11,833 nt of DNA from NCBI GenBank assembly GCA_021768055.1, contig JAASSE010000005.1, positions 1 to 11,833 on the forward strand, in the 5' to 3' direction. Origin of the DNA: Gammaproteobacteria bacterium (lineage in GTDB: Bacteria > Pseudomonadota > Gammaproteobacteria > SZUA-229). Positions 1 to 11,833 of this stretch are shown in pieces. The notes under the pieces were generated by a model. The model was given only the letters and a program-made list of their open reading frames with translations. It was not told where the DNA came from and made no database searches. Made by a program: the position numbers and the translations under genes. The stretch's first letter is position 1, and each line of letters opens with the position of its first letter.

Positions 1-510
1 ACAGGCCATGCCGATCTGGCCAAACCGGTGTCGGTACAGTTTCTCGCCCCTGGTCAGCAGTTCAGCCATCGGCCCGTCAGTTTGTACATTGACGATTTCC
101 CCTTTGGCAAGGTTGCGTATGAATGTTTCGAGGGCAACCAACTGTGGATCATCATAGATAAGAGGGAAGCGGTCCATGCTGATTTCCCAGCAGTCGTTTA
201 TTTTTTCCTGCAGGGTCACCAGGCCGCCCAGATTTTTATCATATATCGGGTAACGCGCAATACTTTTTACATCCAGTTTTTCGCCGTCACTGCCGTGGCA
301 ATTAGCGCAGGCATATTCTTCATCCGGACGGTGTTCATTAAACAGTGCCGTACCCTTGTCCACTGTGACATAACCCGGGTTTTCGAATTCATCATCCTGC
401 ATTGCCTGAGTTTCAGGCGATACAAATTCGTAACCTGAAATCGGCTCAGAGGCGGAAACCGGGGTTATGAAAACTGCAGCTAATAAAAAAACAATACCGT
501 TGATACGCAT
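1..510 (-). CDS. soxA: Sulfur-oxidation cytochrome SoxA, N-terminal part (runs off the window)
   Basis: Only the first 170 residues are in the window; the reading frame is open to base 1. SoxA pairs with SoxX as the periplasmic c-type cytochrome complex that couples thiosulfate to the carrier SoxYZ. A signal peptide covers about residues 1-20 (hydrophobic core, then PVSA before SEP). The family block NPGYVTVDKGTALF spans 44-57, and a haem site CANCH lies at 68-72, so the first haem site is intact as in dihaem SoxA. Cys107 lies in KINDCWE, matching the conserved RINxCR region of the family. The stretch GEKLYRHRFGQIGMAC at 155-170 leads into the second haem site, whose first Cys is the last visible codon. 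The ATG is 6 bases after the soxX stop, and the ribosome site GAGGTGA (517-523) overlaps that stop, so the two genes are translationally linked. The identity is confident; the C-terminal half cannot be judged. Confidence 0.93.
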   Translation of the reverse strand, partial: MRINGIVFLLAAVFITPVSASEPISGYEFVSPETQAMQDDEFENPGYVTVDKGTALFNEHRPDEEYACANCHGSDGEKLDVKSIARYPIYDKNLGGLVTLQEKINDCWEISMDRFPLIYDDPQLVALETFIRNLAKGEIVNVQTDGPMAELLTRGEKLYRHRFGQIGMAC

Positions 511-516
511 AGCTTG

Positions 517-972
517 TCACCTCAGTGTTTTCAGGTAAGCAACGATATCTTCAACCTGCTGTGCGGTCAGGATGGTCTTGCCCCAGTACTCGTCAGCGAC
601 GCGGCTGGCCAGGCGAGGGTCATGGTAAAAGCCTGGCATGACCGAATTCGGATTGAAGCGGCGCTGGTCAACCAGGTGCGCGCGTATCTGGCCTTCTGTC
701 ATGCGCGCGGCAAGACCGTGCAGGGGTGGCCCCACCGTTCCGTGCAAGGTTTCTTCGGGTATCGGCATCTGGTGGCAGGCAAGACAATTGCCGCCATGAG
801 TGTCGATGACGAGTTTTAGCCCGTTGGCACGGTCGCCTTCAAGGTTGCAAAGTGGTTCGTTAATCGCAAGCTCATGCATGCTCCAGTGACAATAGTCGGT
901 GGGCAATGGCGGATGATCACCGGCAACGGGTACGGCAATAAATGTCAGCATCAACAATAATTGAAGGCGCAT
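517..972 (-). CDS. soxX: Sulfur-oxidation cytochrome SoxX
   Basis: A 151-residue monohaem cytochrome c, the partner of SoxA in the SoxXA complex that starts periplasmic thiosulfate oxidation. A signal peptide covers about residues 1-18 (MRLQLLLMLTFIAVPVAG). The haem site CLACH is at 63-67, followed by the SoxX signature GTVGPPLHGLAARMTEGQIR from 78 and by RRFNPNSVMPGFY at 104-116, whose Met112 is the expected axial haem ligand. Cys28 and Cys42 are extra cysteines in the N-terminal extension. The frame is open 50 codons further upstream, but that part overlaps another ORF and would bury the signal peptide, so I start at 972. No Shine-Dalgarno sequence precedes this ATG; instead TATAAT ends 6 bases before it, which suggests a leaderless transcript or coupling to the ORF that stops 7 bases upstream. 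The gene looks complete and functional. Confidence 0.92.
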   Translation of the reverse strand: MRLQLLLMLTFIAVPVAGDHPPLPTDYCHWSMHELAINEPLCNLEGDRANGLKLVIDTHGGNCLACHQMPIPEETLHGTVGPPLHGLAARMTEGQIRAHLVDQRRFNPNSVMPGFYHDPRLASRVADEYWGKTILTAQQVEDIVAYLKTLR

Positions 973-978
973 TAACGA

Positions 979-984
979 ATTATA
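979..984 (-). promoter_or_regulatory. TATAAT just upstream of the soxX ATG (possible leaderless start)
   Basis: A perfect -10 hexamer lies on the minus strand, with 6 bases (TCGTTA) between it and the soxX ATG, so a transcript made from it would begin at or next to the start codon. The same nine bases TATAATTCG at the same distance precede the hydrolase ATG at 3243. No convincing -35 box is visible. The hexamer also contains the TAA stop of the upstream short ORF. Confidence 0.4.
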
Positions 985-1153
985 CTGGTGATTGCCGGTG
1001 CGTGGTTGTTTCCTGGTCCGCATCTTCGATTTCTTCATATGCTGCAATGGATACAGCGGGGTCGTTTTCAGAATTGGAGAGCTCGATAATGTGGCAGCCC
1101 TCTTCAAAATAAAATTCGTCATCAGGATTTATTTTAAAGATGGTTTCGTTCAT
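980..1153 (-). pseudogene. Short cupin-derived ORF with its barrel missing
   Basis: This is an intact 57-codon ORF whose ATG directly follows the TAA of the upstream membrane-protein frame. Residues 1-37 (MNETIFKINPDDEFYFEEGC, then HIIELSNSENDPAVSIA) match, from memory of the family, the N-terminus of small single-domain cupins in which SIA is followed by RARVEPGVTTRWHRL and the metal-binding barrel. Here SIA is followed at once by AYEEIEDAD, which resembles the far C-terminal end of the same proteins (TPRF..EAYEDIE). The central barrel, perhaps 70 or more residues, therefore seems to have been removed in frame, leaving GCAGCA at the join. The product would have no metal site and no fold, although the frame stays open. 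It may survive as a translational link between the membrane ORF and soxX. The alternative is a genuine small protein of unrelated function. Confidence 0.55.
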
Positions 1154-8110: not shown

Positions 8111-8216
8111 ATCCGGTGGGCAGTATTTGCGCGTTGGTAGAGAGACGGGGATTTTAGCCGATGTAGGGGCAAGATTCAGGCTTCACACTACCCCTCTGTG
8201 GTTCACCCTGAAAACC

Positions 8217-8225
8217 TGCGATAAT
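8217..8225 (+). promoter_or_regulatory. Extended -10 promoter of polA
   Basis: TGCGATAAT reads as an extended -10 element: TG, one base, then GATAAT (one mismatch to consensus). Transcription would begin near 8232, giving a leader of about 24 bases before the polA ATG at 8256. The -35 region is weak, as is usual for extended -10 promoters. An 8-base inverted repeat, GCAAGATT (8169-8176) and AATCTTGC (8223-8230), overlaps it, which may be chance. Confidence 0.45.
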
Positions 8226-8255
8226 CTTGCGCTGTTGATAAGTACTGGATTTTTC

Positions 8256-10955
8256 ATGGCTGAACAAGCTCCACCGGTTATTCTGGTTGACGGCTCATCC
8301 TACTTCTACCGTGCGTTTCACGTGCCGCAGCTGCAGCGCCTGACCACCAGCAAGAACCAGCCCACGGGTGCTGTGTATGGCGTGATCAACATGCTGCGCA
8401 AGTTGCGTAAGGAATACGAGCCCGAGTACATGGCCGTGGTATTTGATGCCAAGGGCAAGACCTTTCGCCATGACATGTACAAGGAATACAAGGCCAACCG
8501 ACCGCCGATGCCGGATGAGCTGCGCGCCCAGGTTGAACCCCTGCACGCGCTGGTCAGGGCAATGGGCTTTCCATTGATAATCGTTGACGGCGTTGAAGCC
8601 GATGATGTGATCGGTACGCTGGCGGTAGAACTGGGCAAGCAGGAAAAAGAAACCCTCATATCAACCGGCGATAAAGACCTGGCCCAGCTGGTCAACCCAC
8701 ACGTAACCCTGGTCAACACCATGACCGACACCGTCATGGATGAAGCCGGTGTAGAAAGCAAGTTTGAAATCACAGCCGATCTCATCATCGATTACCTCAC
8801 CCTGATAGGCGATACATCCGACAACATTCCGGGTGTGCCCAAGGTCGGACCCAAGACTGCAGTGAAATGGCTCAAGCAATACGGTTCGCTGGACAACATT
8901 ATCAAACACGCTGACGAGATCGGTGGCAAAGTGGGTGAGAACCTGCGTGACAGTCTCGAACAACTGCCGCTGTCGAGAGAGCTGGTCACGATCAAGTGTG
9001 ATCTTGATCTCGGCCTTGGTCTGGAAGACCTGAAAATGCAGAATGCTGACGAAACAACACTGCATGAGATGTTCGTTGATCTCGAGTTCCGTTCGTGGCT
9101 AGATGAGCTAGAAGGTGGCGGTGAAGAGAAAACCAGGGCAATCAAGTCAGAAACAAATTACCAGACTGTACTAACACAAAAGGAATTCGATGCCTGGTTG
9201 AAAAAACTGAAAAAAGCCAAGGCCTTTGCGTTTGATACCGAGACCACCAGCCTGGACTACATGCAGGCACGCATCGTCGGTGTGTCGTTTGCAATCGAAG
9301 CAGGTAACGCAGCTTATGTGCCCTTTGGCCATGATTACCCAGATGCGCCAAAACAACTCAGTGAACAAGATGTACTCGGTACGTTGAAACCTTTGCTTGA
9401 AGATCCCAAAACCAACAAGATCGGGCAGAACCTTAAATACGATGCACATGTACTGGCGAACCATGGCATAAACCTGCGCGGCATCGCTGAAGACACCATG
9501 CTTGAATCGTACGTGCTCGATTCAACCCAGCGTCATGACATGGACAACATGTCGTTACGCTTGCTCGGCCATAACACCATTCACTTTGAAGACATTGCCG
9601 GCAAAGGTGCGAAGCAACTCACCTTCAATCAAATCGATCTGGAGCAGGCCGGGCCGTATGCAGCGGAAGATGCCGACATTACCCTGCAAATACACCAGAA
9701 ACTGAGTGCAGACCTTAAAAGTAAAAAATCCTTAATGAAGGTCTATCGAGAGATTGAACTGCCGCTATTGCCGGTATTACTGAAGATAGAACGCAACGGT
9801 GTAAAGGTTGATGTTGCGATGCTGAAAAAGCACAGCAAGCAACTCGCCAAACGCATCGTTGAAATTGAAAAGCATGCGTTCGATGTGGCTGGTGAAGTCT
9901 TCAATCTCGCATCACCCAAGCAGATACAACAGATACTGTTTGAAAAACAGCAATTGCCGGTCATTAGAAAAACACCGAAAGGCCAACCGTCGACTGCCGA
10001 AGATGTTTTGCAGGAACTCGCCGAAGAGTATGAACTGCCAGAACTGATCCTCGAGCATCGCAGCATGAGCAAGTTGAAGTCGACCTATACCGACAAGCTA
10101 CCAGAACAGGTCGATAAAAAAACCGGGCGTGTGCATACCTCGTACAACCAGACGGTTGCAGCCACGGGGCGTCTGTCTTCGACCGACCCGAACCTGCAGA
10201 ACATCCCGGCGCGCAGCGATGAAGGCCGCCGCATACGCCAGGCGTTCATAGCCGAAAAAGGTAATTGTTTACTGGCGGCAGACTACTCGCAAATTGAATT
10301 GCGCATCATGGCGCACCTGTCAGGCGACAAAAACCTGTTAAAAGCATTCAGCGAAGGCAAGGATATTCATCGCGCCACAGCCGCCGAAGTCTTCGGCGTT
10401 GCGATCGATGAAGTCGATGATGATCAGCGCCGCCACGCGAAAGCGATCAACTTCGGCTTGATCTACGGCATGTCAGCATTTGGCCTGGCCAAGCAACTGG
10501 GTATCGGGCGTTACGAAGCACAGGATTATGTTGATCTGTATTTCCAGCGTTACCCAGGCGTCAAGGCTTACATGGATGAAACCCGTGCGAAAGCACACGA
10601 CCAGGGTTATGTTGAAACCGTGTATGGCCGACGCTTGTATTTACCGGAGATCAATGCGCGTAATGCGCAGCGCCGCCAGTACGCAGAACGCACCGCGATC
10701 AATGCACCGATGCAGGGCACAGCGGCGGACATCATCAAGCGCGCGATGATTTCAGTTGATGCCGCGCTCGATAACAGCAAGCTGGATGCACGCGTGGTGA
10801 TGCAGGTGCACGATGAGCTGGTACTCGAAGTCTCCGAGAAGCAGGTCGATAAATTGACCGAGCTGTTGCGTACCAGCATGGAAGGTGCCGCAAAGCTGAA
10901 AGTGCCGTTAATCGTGGGTATTGGGAGTGGTTCGAACTGGGACGAGGCGCATTAG
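8256..10955 (+). CDS. polA: DNA polymerase I
   Basis: An 899-residue enzyme (E. coli has 928) that fills gaps, removes RNA primers and serves in excision repair. The 5'-3' exonuclease domain starts at once (VILVDGSSYFYRAFHVPQL) and includes ISTGDKDLAQLV and IPGVPKVGPKTA. The 3'-5' proofreading domain keeps its acidic residues: Asp327 and Glu329 in FDTETTSL, Asp396 in GQNLKYDAHVL, and Asp472 in YAAEDADITL. The polymerase domain has motif A with Asp676 (ADYSQIELRIMAHLSGD), the O-helix RRHAKAINFGLIYG with Lys729, Phe733 and Tyr737, and motif C QVHDELVLEV with Asp853. All three activities should therefore be present. The frame is open upstream to 8127, but ATG 8256 begins the conserved N-terminus. 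It is convergent with engB across 482 bases. No T-rich terminator follows on the plus strand. Confidence 0.98.
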   Translation: MAEQAPPVILVDGSSYFYRAFHVPQLQRLTTSKNQPTGAVYGVINMLRKLRKEYEPEYMAVVFDAKGKTFRHDMYKEYKANRPPMPDELRAQVEPLHALVRAMGFPLIIVDGVEADDVIGTLAVELGKQEKETLISTGDKDLAQLVNPHVTLVNTMTDTVMDEAGVESKFEITADLIIDYLTLIGDTSDNIPGVPKVGPKTAVKWLKQYGSLDNIIKHADEIGGKVGENLRDSLEQLPLSRELVTIKCDLDLGLGLEDLKMQNADETTLHEMFVDLEFRSWLDELEGGGEEKTRAIKSETNYQTVLTQKEFDAWLKKLKKAKAFAFDTETTSLDYMQARIVGVSFAIEAGNAAYVPFGHDYPDAPKQLSEQDVLGTLKPLLEDPKTNKIGQNLKYDAHVLANHGINLRGIAEDTMLESYVLDSTQRHDMDNMSLRLLGHNTIHFEDIAGKGAKQLTFNQIDLEQAGPYAAEDADITLQIHQKLSADLKSKKSLMKVYREIELPLLPVLLKIERNGVKVDVAMLKKHSKQLAKRIVEIEKHAFDVAGEVFNLASPKQIQQILFEKQQLPVIRKTPKGQPSTAEDVLQELAEEYELPELILEHRSMSKLKSTYTDKLPEQVDKKTGRVHTSYNQTVAATGRLSSTDPNLQNIPARSDEGRRIRQAFIAEKGNCLLAADYSQIELRIMAHLSGDKNLLKAFSEGKDIHRATAAEVFGVAIDEVDDDQRRHAKAINFGLIYGMSAFGLAKQLGIGRYEAQDYVDLYFQRYPGVKAYMDETRAKAHDQGYVETVYGRRLYLPEINARNAQRRQYAERTAINAPMQGTAADIIKRAMISVDAALDNSKLDARVVMQVHDELVLEVSEKQVDKLTELLRTSMEGAAKLKVPLIVGIGSGSNWDEAH

Positions 10956-10957
10956 GT

Positions 10958-11038
10958 CAGGAACTAGGTGCTAGGCTCCACTGTTCAAATCTTGTCAGCT
11001 CTATCCAAAGCATCCTAGAACCTAGTACCTAGAACCTG
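10958..11038. repeat. Inverted repeat built from 7-base CTAGG units
   Basis: Two 18-base arms, CAGGAACTAGGTGCTAGG (10958-10975) and CCTAGTACCTAGAACCTG (11021-11038), are inverted copies with three mismatches. Each arm is made of 7-base units of the form NNCTAGG, and the right side has an extra unit from 11014. The arms enclose 45 bases without an ORF. The element starts 2 bases after the polA stop. It may be a dispersed intergenic repeat or the remains of a small non-coding element; nothing here shows mobility. Confidence 0.5.
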
Positions 11039-11060
11039 TTTTCGCGGAGCGAAAACCAGG
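11035..11060. repeat. Hairpin TTTTCGC/GCGAAAA downstream of polA
   Basis: A 7-base stem, TTTTCGC and GCGAAAA, surrounds the loop GGA. It is extended by CCTG and CAGG with one bulged C. No T run follows on the plus strand, so it is at best a weak end for polA RNA, or protects that RNA from 3' decay. Confidence 0.4.
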
Positions 11061-11061
11061 C

Positions 11062-11094
11062 AAAAAAACGCCCGGCCTAAAAAAGTGGCCGGGC
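11062..11094 (-). terminator. Strong rho-independent terminator (minus strand)
   Basis: Perfect 8-base GC-only arms, GCCCGGCC and GGCCGGGC (11070-11077 and 11087-11094), surround a 9-base loop. On the minus strand they are followed by G and seven Ts (11068-11062). On the plus strand the hairpin is followed by AATGAAAC, so it works only for leftward transcripts. No protein gene ends near it: the engB stop is over 340 bases upstream. It is therefore best explained as the end of a non-coding RNA. Confidence 0.85.
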
Positions 11095-11221
11095 AATGAA
11101 ACGGGACTAGCTTGGGGTTGCTAATCCCTAAACGGCCCACTCAGGGAGGTAAGCGGGCCTGCGCCGGGCTTCAGCGCATTCTCCAACACGGCAATAACAG
11201 GTAAGTCTCACACATTCCCTG
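11062..11221 (-). ncRNA. Candidate small RNA of about 160 nt between engB and polA
   Basis: Reading leftward, the region folds into a chain of hairpins. An imperfect one lies at 11198-11221. A 7-pair stem with loop AAGCC lies at 11160-11178, and a 10-pair stem with loop CCUCCC abuts it at 11134-11159. A 9-pair stem with loop AACCCCAA lies at 11103-11128, and the terminator closes the chain. The second, third and fourth stems contain one, two and one G-U pairs that would be A-C mismatches if the plus strand were transcribed, so the RNA is minus-strand. The CCUCCC loop is complementary to GGGAGG, a Shine-Dalgarno core, and the CCCC loop is similar, as in C-rich-loop regulators of translation. 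Spot 42 of E. coli lies in the same polA-engB gap but on the polA strand, so this is not a simple homologue. The 5' end is inferred from a promoter-like pair. Confidence 0.6.
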
Positions 11222-11227
11222 ATATTG

Positions 11228-11256
11228 ATTAAAGACCAACCAGCCGGGAATATGAA
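11228..11256 (-). promoter_or_regulatory. Possible promoter of the candidate small RNA
   Basis: On the minus strand TTCATA (11256-11251, four of six to consensus) and TTTAAT (11233-11228, five of six, but lacking the strongly conserved second-position A) are 17 bases apart. This would start RNA near 11221, exactly where the first hairpin begins. The boxes are weak; a better extended -10 lies further upstream at 11339-11347. Confidence 0.3.
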
Positions 11257-11314
11257 ATAGAACCGATGAGCGGTGTTAATTAGACAGCAAAAAGCGAAAA
11301 AATTTTAAGAAATT

Positions 11315-11375
11315 TGTGGAAAACTTTAGAATTTAATAATTATAACAACTACTTAAAAAACCGTCTTTATCCACA
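11315..11375. promoter_or_regulatory. Two DnaA-box-like sites around an AT-rich patch, with an extended -10
   Basis: A perfect DnaA box TTATCCACA lies at 11367-11375 (plus), and a one-mismatch box TTTTCCACA lies on the minus strand at 11323-11315. The DNA between and beside them (about 11281-11360) is very AT-rich. Within it the minus strand has TGTTATAAT (11347-11339), a perfect extended -10 that would start a longer RNA near 11332 and run into the small-RNA region. DnaA control of that transcript is possible. The region resembles part of a replication origin, but two boxes are too few to call one. Confidence 0.4.
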
Positions 11376-11391
11376 TTAAGAGCAGGTTGGC

Positions 11392-11414
11392 TTAACCGGG
11401 TGAGTGTCGGTTAA
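11392..11414. repeat. Hairpin TTAACCG/CGGTTAA after engB
   Basis: A perfect 7-base stem with a 9-base loop starts 23 bases beyond the engB stop. Neither side carries a run of Ts long enough for a standard terminator. It may mark the 3' end of engB mRNA by stabilising it, leaving some read-through into the small-RNA region. Confidence 0.35.
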
Positions 11415-11437: not shown

Positions 11438-11833
11438 TCAGCCCAATTCGAACCAGTTATCGAGCTTTTTAACGAGTTCTTCAAGACCGGTTTTCTTCAG
11501 AGCAGAGAAGATTTGTACGCTGGCATCAAAGCCGCAGTCTTTTAGCTGCTTTTTCACTGCCAACAGGGTGTTCTGCCGGGCGCCGCGCTTGAGCTTGTCG
11601 GCCTTGGTCAGCAATATGTGCGCAGGCAGGCCGTAATACTGGCACCATTCCAGCATCTGCCAGTCGAATTCTTTCATCGGGTGGCGGATGTCGCTGATGA
11701 TCACCAGCCCACGCAGGCTCTGTTGCTGCTGCAGATAGGCCTCCATCAGCTGCTGCCAGTCGTGCTTCATTTTCTCAGGTACTTTTGCATAGCCATAACC
11801 CGGCAGGTCGACCAGGCGGCGCTGATCATCGAG
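11438..11833 (-). CDS. engB: Ribosome-biogenesis GTPase EngB/YsxC/YihA, C-terminal part
   Basis: The last 131 residues of a GTPase that normally has about 200; the start lies beyond the right edge. EngB is needed for assembly of the large ribosomal subunit and so for growth and division. The visible part begins LDDQRRLVDLPGYGYAKV, which holds the G3 motif DLPG, and continues through the G4 motif TKAD (in HILLTKADKLKRG) and the G5-like SALKKTG. It ends at NWFELG. The P-loop and switch I fall outside the window. The frame is open to the edge, so the internal ATG at 11770 is not the start. Its convergent position to polA is the usual gammaproteobacterial order. Confidence 0.95.
   Translation of the reverse strand, partial: LDDQRRLVDLPGYGYAKVPEKMKHDWQQLMEAYLQQQQSLRGLVIISDIRHPMKEFDWQMLEWCQYYGLPAHILLTKADKLKRGARQNTLLAVKKQLKDCGFDASVQIFSALKKTGLEELVKKLDNWFELG

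What the first reader, a model, noticed from the sequence alone, without database searches (positions are those of the whole stretch)
11062..11221. Candidate minus-strand small RNA with a CCUCCC loop in the polA-engB gap
Five consecutive hairpins fill this stretch, ending in a GC-only 8-pair terminator with seven Ts. Three separate stems (11103-11128, 11134-11159, 11160-11178) stay paired only on the minus strand, where their variable positions become G-U. That points to selection on an RNA of that strand. Two C-rich loops (CCUCCC and AACCCCAA) could pair with Shine-Dalgarno regions. E. coli keeps Spot 42 in this gap but on the other strand, so this could be a distinct regulator in a sulfur oxidiser.
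Basis: partly seen in the sequence, partly recalled or inferred. Interest (0 to 1): 0.75.

Follow-up and report, generated by a model that had tools for sequence, protein, structure and literature searches.

The report
Widespread small RNA beside polA
The stretch is very probably a real small-RNA gene; relatives occur in about half of the sampled genomes of its bacterial class, mostly beside the polA or engB gene where this was looked at, and they link small RNAs described separately in Burkholderia, Xanthomonas and perhaps Pseudomonas.

Summary
Window 11062-11221 (minus) is very probably a small-RNA gene. Three C-looped hairpins and a terminator are kept by compensatory changes in the window and 16 relatives (16 of 30 pairs change on both sides, 0 of 500 shuffles reach this); 71 G-U against 6 A-C cells fix the strand. 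A covariance model finds it in 42 of 54 genomes of the order, a broader one in 192 of 369 of the class; polA and/or engB stand beside 91 of 107 class loci examined. It misses every Rfam cut-off but is homologous to anti-hemB of Burkholderia and sX13 of Xanthomonas, possibly to ErsA of Pseudomonas; kinship with Spot 42 was not shown. Relatives mostly lie on the polA strand and half have a sigma-E-type promoter; in this family the promoter is sigma-70-like, and in this genus the gene is inverted. Best mechanism, inferred from sX13: C-rich loops pair with G-rich ribosome-binding sites. hfq is a candidate target in this family (34 of 41 sites against 10 of 249 background), but a class-wide test was negative. 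Transcription was not tested.

The parts
11062..11221 (-). small-RNA gene, about 160 nt; 5' end inferred about 7 nt after the -10 box
   Evidence: fold z -4.77; R1 match 11062-11178, 118.3 bits, by construction; conserved -10 box upstream
11160..11178 (-). hairpin 1, loop with CCC
   Evidence: 6 pairs, 97.1% of cells paired over 17 sequences, 1 pair with a change on both sides
11134..11159 (-). hairpin 2, loop CCUCCC at 11144-11149
   Evidence: 8 pairs, 99.3% paired, 5 with changes on both sides; CUCCC in this loop in 66 of 69 model-selected sequences
11103..11128 (-). hairpin 3, loop AACCCCAA at 11112-11119
   Evidence: 9 pairs, 96.1% paired, 7 with changes on both sides; CCCC in this loop in 66 of 69 model-selected sequences
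11062..11094 (-). intrinsic terminator: stem 11070-11077 with 11087-11094, T run 11062-11068
   Evidence: sequence; 7 pairs, 91.5% paired, 3 with changes on both sides; not listed by the consensus scan, loop too long for it
11228..11233 (-). -10 promoter element TTTAAT
   Evidence: TTGAC-N16-19-TTTA[AC]T upstream of the RNA in 20 of 28 family sequences, shuffled mean 0.04; the window and its genus keep the -10 but, by eye, no clear -35
11262..11274 (-). conserved upstream element ACCGCTCATCGGT (family form close to ACCNYTCRTCGG), possible regulator site
   Evidence: seen by eye in many family sequences, no statistic; binding protein unknown
11438..11833 (-). engB (yihA/ysxC), 5' end beyond the window
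   Evidence: TIGR03598, 141.2 bits, cut-off 124.45
8127..10955 (+). polA, convergent with engB; start codon not settled
   Evidence: ORF; its DNA matches the annotated polA of an E. coli record; C-terminal part used to find PolA loci in relatives

Best explanation
The stretch is a self-contained gene for a trans-acting small RNA: own promoter, three stable hairpins with C-rich loops and an intrinsic terminator. It belongs to a homologous group of RNAs found in about half of the sampled genomes of its class, mostly between polA and engB or beside one of them. The most likely action is that of sX13: the CUCCC and CCCC loops pair with G-rich stretches at ribosome-binding sites and lower translation of several mRNAs, hfq being a candidate in this family. 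In about half of the class copies examined the promoter looks sigma-E-type (envelope stress); in this family it is sigma-70-like with a conserved upstream element, and in this genus the whole unit is inverted. Shown by sequence: structure, strand, terminator, homologous group, locus, promoter motifs, inversion. Inferred: transcription, pairing with mRNAs, repression, targets, sigma factors.
For: Covariation: 96.1% of cells paired, 16 of 30 pairs and 62 cells changed on both sides, 0 of 500 shuffles as high on these; 69 sequences: 95.1% paired, 29 of 30 pairs changed on both sides, score 0.650 against 0.216 shuffled and at most 0.095 when slid. Strand: 71 G-U against 6 A-C cells (17 sequences), 158 against 18 (69 sequences). 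Spread: 42 of 54 genomes of the order, 21 of 22 good ones; 192 of 369 of the class, both counts including genomes used to build the models. Locus: 91 of 107 class loci and 29 of 30 family loci examined have polA and/or engB beside the RNA. Homology: 20 of 20 class loci given (the best-scoring ones) match RF02837 at E <= 0.01, 6 over its cut-off; R2 finds the RNA in 20 of 20 named loci given, of 120, Burkholderia among them, and two held-out sX13 genes at 38.1 and 34.8 bits. Promoters: sigma-E-type motif in 64 of 129 class upstream regions, shuffled mean 0.33. Expression of a relative: ncS04, named anti-hemB, was seen by dRNA-seq with its 3' end confirmed by RACE (PMC5688073, passages). Mechanism: sX13 represses through C-rich loops and G-rich motifs, hfq among its targets (PMC3771888, passages); hfq site GGGAG or GGGGA in 34 of 41 family genes against 10 of 249 ORFs of one family genome and 0 of 30 next-gene controls.
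Against: No expression data for this organism. hfq across the class: 4 of 35 genomes with the RNA have the G-rich site against 7 of 37 without, p 0.52, and those with the RNA more often have the ordinary AGGAG (29 of 35 against 16 of 37); hfq is at best a target in this family and in xanthomonads. The pairing proposed for hfq is only about five base pairs. Under the looser measure of further pair types, 44 of 500 shuffles reached the observed value. Weak matches to RF02837 are not specific: the whole-genome search rang in 3 of 14 control genomes, including Caulobacter and Deinobacterium, all under the cut-off, and in the class 27 of 56 genomes matched but 1 of 56 over the cut-off. A whole-genome sX13 search gave no match in the window's own genome at E <= 0.001. 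Three genomes of the genus show no match, one a single contig (G002). R1 gave at least one probable false match (L166, in a xanthomonad whose sX13 lies elsewhere). Against stress control in Burkholderia: ncS04 did not change significantly in the seven conditions tabulated.
Confidence: 0.78

Rival explanations
1. It is only the structured 3' end and terminator of the engB mRNA, without a role of its own.
For: In the window it lies downstream of engB on the same strand, where a terminator is expected; the consensus scan finds no minus-strand promoter.
Against: In other genera of the family and in 61 of 67 class loci with polA seen the RNA lies on the polA strand, facing engB; a -10 box and, in relatives, full promoter motifs precede it and turn with it; loops are conserved as well as stems; tandem copies occur, up to five.
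Confidence: 0.07
2. It is Spot 42 moved to the other strand.
For: Same gene gap as Spot 42 in E. coli; a review calls ErsA, a possible relative, a functional orthologue of Spot 42 (PMC8395346, passage).
Against: Window scores 14.2 bits for RF00021, cut-off 80; R2 gives E. coli Spot 42 13.3 bits, E 0.047, below the best background match of 23.5 bits in 380 kb.
Confidence: 0.04
3. The window RNA is real, but anti-hemB, sX13 and ErsA are separate inventions that converged on C-rich loops at the same gene gap.
For: C-rich loops occur in unrelated small RNAs (PMC3771888, passage); ErsA scores only 23.5 bits with R2, equal to the best background match, and its genome G214 has no R2 match at E <= 0.001; RF02837 weak matches ring in unrelated control genomes; Rfam lists no clan for these families.
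Against: Shared order of hairpins and shared locus; held-out sX13 at E 1.9e-7 and 9.9e-7; RF02837 over its cut-off in 6 of 20 polA-engB-type class loci; a sigma-E-type promoter, by eye, before the ErsA locus too.
Confidence: 0.18

Closest known systems
anti-hemB (Rfam RF02837, Burkholderia RNA 7; ncS04 of B. cenocepacia)
   Same: Hairpin with CCUCCC loop, further hairpin, terminator; beside engB; full-length match of 38.4 bits, E 1.7e-7; R2 finds the Burkholderia ambifaria copy, 43.3 bits.
   Different: Below the curated cut-off of 49.5; the Rfam alignment begins at hairpin 2; in B. ambifaria the other neighbour is hemB, here polA.
sX13 (Rfam RF02232, Xanthomonadaceae)
   Same: Beside polA; three stem-loops with C-rich loops; held-out match to R2; works, by published tests, on G-rich motifs (PMC3771888, passages).
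   Different: Window scores 25.5 bits, cut-off 50; the window's terminator loop has no C run; published as confined to Xanthomonadaceae.
ErsA / Pseudomon-1 (Rfam RF01719, Pseudomonas)
   Same: polA-engB gap in P. aeruginosa and sigma-22 control (PMC8575079, passages), like the sigma-E-type motifs of the group; C-rich loops in its two Rfam hairpins.
   Different: Window gives no RF01719 match at E <= 5; R2 scores it only at background level; a long unpaired 5' part; the window lacks a sigma-E-type promoter; published as Hfq-aided (PMC8395346).
Spot 42 (Rfam RF00021, E. coli)
   Same: Same gene gap.
   Different: No significant sequence-structure match; on the polA strand, the window's RNA on the other.

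Membership tests
anti-hemB RF02837 | Rfam gathering score 49.5 bits | tested here: not met
   38.4 bits, E 1.7e-7; 6 of 20 best-scoring class relatives pass it, 1 of 56 sampled class genomes
anti-hemB RF02837 | place beside engB | tested here: met
   engB at 11438-11833; 73 of 120 named pattern loci also show engB
anti-hemB RF02837 | hemB as the other neighbour (as in B. ambifaria) | tested here: not met
   polA here; hemB in L188
sX13 RF02232 | Rfam gathering score 50 bits | tested here: not met
   25.5 bits, E 0.0074; no match in the own genome at E <= 0.001
sX13 RF02232 | gene next to polA | tested here: met
sX13 RF02232 | three C-rich apical loops (4C, 4C, 5C in Xcv) | tested here: inconclusive
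   CCC, CUCCC and CCCC in hairpins 1-3 here, but no C run in the terminator loop
sX13 RF02232 | acts without Hfq on G-rich motifs | not testable with these tools
   needs reporter assays
ErsA RF01719 | Rfam model match | tested here: not met
   no RF01719 match at E <= 5 in 10900-11400
ErsA RF01719 | sigma-22 (sigma-E-type) promoter | tested here: not met
   strict motif in 0 of 28, relaxed in 3 of 28 family upstream regions; none seen in the window's own
Spot 42 RF00021 | Rfam gathering score 80 bits | tested here: not met
   14.2 bits, E 4.8
polA-engB C-loop RNA group defined here (R1, R2) | four helices with compensatory changes, C-rich loops 2 and 3, polA and/or engB beside it | tested here: met
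   the window is one of the sequences R1 and R2 were built from, so its own score is no test

The most novel reading that the evidence does not exclude
anti-hemB, sX13, ErsA and the window's RNA descend from one ancestral sigma-E-driven small RNA that stood downstream of polA early in the Gammaproteobacteria (including the former Betaproteobacteria). It would be among the most widespread envelope-stress small RNAs known, inverted in place several times, multiplied in tandem, moved to other loci, and, in the window's family, taken over by another promoter.
Probability: 0.52. Interest if true: 0.75.

Novelty: new member of a known kind. Interest (0 to 1): 0.57.

Why it matters
The authors of the sX13 study asked whether the polA locus of other bacteria also encodes small RNAs and whether structurally related ones act alike (PMC3771888, passage). 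The data here bear on the first half: RNAs of this group match in 192 of 369 sampled genomes of the class, and polA and/or engB stand beside 91 of 107 class loci examined. If the group is one family, results on sX13, anti-hemB and perhaps ErsA can be read together, unlinked Rfam families could become a clan, and sigma-E control, published for ErsA, becomes a testable prediction for many bacteria.

Tried and rejected
Fifth hairpin (11179-11221): not a hairpin of its own in the fold, not kept outside the genus by eye. Membership in any Rfam family at its curated cut-off: rejected. Spot 42 on the other strand: not supported. hfq as a target across the class: 90 loci given (40 from genomes with an R2 match, 50 without, picked by hand from the listed, best-scoring Hfq matches), start found in 35 and 37; 4 of 35 against 7 of 37, p 0.52; kept only as a family-level lead. 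ErsA by covariance model: 23.5 bits equals the best background match in 380 kb and its genome has no R2 match at E <= 0.001; kept as possible on locus, loops and promoter.

The hfq count used a wrong pattern and found none; repeated correctly. Pseudomonas genomes were sought with CrcZ: 143 genomes, none over the cut-off, then 369, one over it. That the class is Gammaproteobacteria is inferred from the sX13 and CrcZ carriers in it.

Paper searches. In one search no paper held two of the names anti-hemB, sX13, ErsA; this covers only the held open-access library. Of PMC3771888, PMC8575079, PMC3521395, PMC5688073, PMC12153292, PMC5819304 and PMC8395346 I saw found passages (parts of abstracts where a passage or listing showed them); of all other papers, search listings only.

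Full report
What is there. On the minus strand, window 11062-11221 folds into three hairpins and a terminator with z -4.77; the plus strand gives -2.15. The fifth hairpin claimed is not supported. polA (plus strand, stop at 10955) and engB (minus strand, stop at 11438; TIGR03598) converge on the gap, and the RNA lies on the engB strand. The simple consensus scan lists neither a minus-strand promoter nor this terminator.

Relatives. A DNA search matched 17 of 58 genomes, the own one included. One sequence from each of these 17 aligns over the core; a second match in one of them, L011, is cut by its contig end and was left out. The structure is the RNAalifold consensus of the same alignment (which counts 15 pairs with double changes). 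Counted pair by pair: 96.1% of cells paired, 16 of 30 pairs and 62 cells changed on both sides, none of 500 shuffles as high on these; for the number of further pair types 44 of 500 shuffles were as high. Sliding the partners by one column drops pairing to 41-47%. Paired columns hold 71 G-U and 6 A-C cells, which fixes the strand, since an A-C cell would be the wobble pair of the other strand.

Spread. Model R1 from this alignment matches 42 of 54 genomes of the order, 21 of 22 good ones and all 14 genera (the 17 source genomes are among them, and all 54 belong to one family), and 118 of 369 genomes of the class. I examined 107 class loci: 26 delivered, 80 fetched, plus one sX13 locus; ten low-scoring genomes were not fetched. 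polA and/or engB stand beside 91 of 107. The other 16 show neither in the stretch held; among those whose flanks I scanned, some have other genes there, for example a proteasome-type subunit and a radical-SAM protein (L120) or a ribose-5-phosphate isomerase (L142), and L166 is probably a false match. R2 matches 192 of 369 genomes, its source genomes included; the surroundings of these matches were checked only where they coincide with the 107 loci. In 380 kb of one family genome outside the locus R2's best match was 23.5 bits, E 0.0082.

Strand and copies. In the family the RNA is on the polA strand in 20 of 24 loci where polA is seen and opposite in 4, all four in the window's genus. In the class it is on the polA strand in 61 of 67 loci with polA seen; with one locus placed by engB alone, seven class loci are inverted, in five families, so six with the window's. 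Promoter elements turn with the RNA. Tandem copies reach five in L105 and four in L136 and L165. Three genomes of the window's genus have no match, one a single contig.

Known relatives. No Rfam family reaches its cut-off in the window; anti-hemB gives 38.4 bits, E 1.7e-7, and sX13 25.5 bits, E 0.0074. Of the 20 best-scoring class loci all match anti-hemB at E <= 0.01 and 6 pass the cut-off. In whole-genome searches anti-hemB matched 27 of 56 class genomes, 1 over the cut-off, but also 3 of 14 control genomes below it, so weak matches alone prove little; sX13 matched 3 of 56, 1 over the cut-off, not the own genome, and 1 of 14 controls. 74 of the 120 show engB and/or polA in the piece held; for the other 46 neither was detected. 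R2 matches 20 of 20 of these that I gave it, at 30.3 to 77.1 bits; as they were picked by a piece of hairpin 2, this is not fully independent. In Burkholderia ambifaria the RNA lies between engB and hemB, which may explain the name anti-hemB. Two held-out sX13 genes score 38.1 and 34.8 bits, E 1.9e-7 and 9.9e-7 in 13 kb; in the stricter whole-genome search two of three genomes of that family matched. The ErsA gene of a Pseudomonas-like genome (CrcZ; RF01719, 121.3 bits) scores 23.5 bits, no better than background, and that genome has no R2 match at E <= 0.001; its kinship rests on locus, loops and promoter. Spot 42 scores 13.3 bits, E 0.047. A review calls ErsA a functional orthologue of Spot 42 (PMC8395346).

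Promoters. A sigma-E-type motif (GAACT-N16-18-TCNNA) stands upstream of 64 of 129 class copies, shuffled mean 0.33, maximum 3; the strict form in 43 of 129; its -10 mostly ends 7-9 bases before the model start. The motif was written down after looking at 33 of these regions. Among the named pattern loci it is 27 of 117, and a sigma-70-like motif 12 of 117 (shuffled means 0.44 and 0.52). ErsA is transcribed by sigma-22, the sigma-E homologue (PMC8395346 and PMC5819304, passages). In the window's family the relaxed motif occurs in 3 of 28 and the strict one in none, while TTGAC-N16-19-TTTA[AC]T occurs in 20 of 28; the window itself keeps only the -10. RpoE is over its cut-off in 45 of 54 genomes of the order; the own genome shows a piece at a contig edge and lesser matches. 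So the promoter has probably been exchanged. Sigma-factor use is inferred from motifs alone, and the Burkholderia relative ncS04 did not change in the seven conditions tabulated (PMC5688073).

Mechanism. CUCCC in loop 2 and CCCC in loop 3 are each present in 66 of 69 sequences (selected by R1, which knows these loops). sX13, with the same plan, lowers protein synthesis through C-rich loops and G-rich motifs near start codons, without Hfq, and hfq is one of its targets (PMC3771888). In the window's family I looked at hfq in 41 of the 49 genomes with an Hfq match: 34 of 41 have GGGAG or GGGGA at the ribosome-binding site, the own genome reading GGGGAG; in 249 ORFs of one family genome it is 10, and in 30 next-gene controls, found in 30 of the 41 loci, none. 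The genes are related and the control starts were chosen by a crude script. A wider test went against hfq as a general target: 4 of 35 genomes with the RNA, 7 of 37 without, and AGGAG in 29 of 35 against 16 of 37 (5 and 13 loci dropped because the start was not found). I keep pairing at ribosome-binding sites as the most likely mechanism and hfq as a family-level candidate.

Odds.

Verdict. Very probably a real, conserved small-RNA gene; a homologue of known RNAs below their cut-offs; inverted and probably with an exchanged promoter in this lineage; part of a group wider than the papers found here describe.

Noticed in passing
window 10961-11038: Short repeats of the kind CTAGGTACTAGGTTCTAG between polA and the RNA, facing each other, like a small repeat element; seen by eye only.
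   Followed up: no
window 11038-11056: Palindrome GTTTTCGCGGAGCGAAAAC just beyond the terminator, seen by eye; may end polA transcription.
   Followed up: no
L105, L136, L165: Tandem arrays of five, four and four copies of the RNA beside polA.
   Followed up: partly
L120, L142 (and L126, same ORF layout as L120, flanks not scanned): Copies of the RNA beside other genes (proteasome-type subunit and radical-SAM protein; ribose-5-phosphate isomerase), each with a sigma-E-type motif upstream.
   Followed up: partly
G001, G002 (single contig), G005: Three genomes of the window's genus without a match to the RNA; loss or incomplete genomes, not settled.
   Followed up: no
L294 1224-1353 (sX13 locus): The sX13 gene also matches the alphaproteobacterial families Atu_C7 (33.6 bits) and ar14 (32.8 bits) below their cut-offs, a hint that the group may reach further.
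   Followed up: no
window 1-1122: SoxX (over its cut-off) and a SoxA piece cut by the window's edge, in line with a sulfur oxidiser.
   Followed up: yes
window 11262-11274 and relatives: Conserved upstream element close to ACCNYTCRTCGG before the RNA's promoter in this family; no regulator identified.
   Followed up: partly
L068 2100-2178: TwoAYGGAY RNA (RF01731) match just over its cut-off near one class relative.
   Followed up: no
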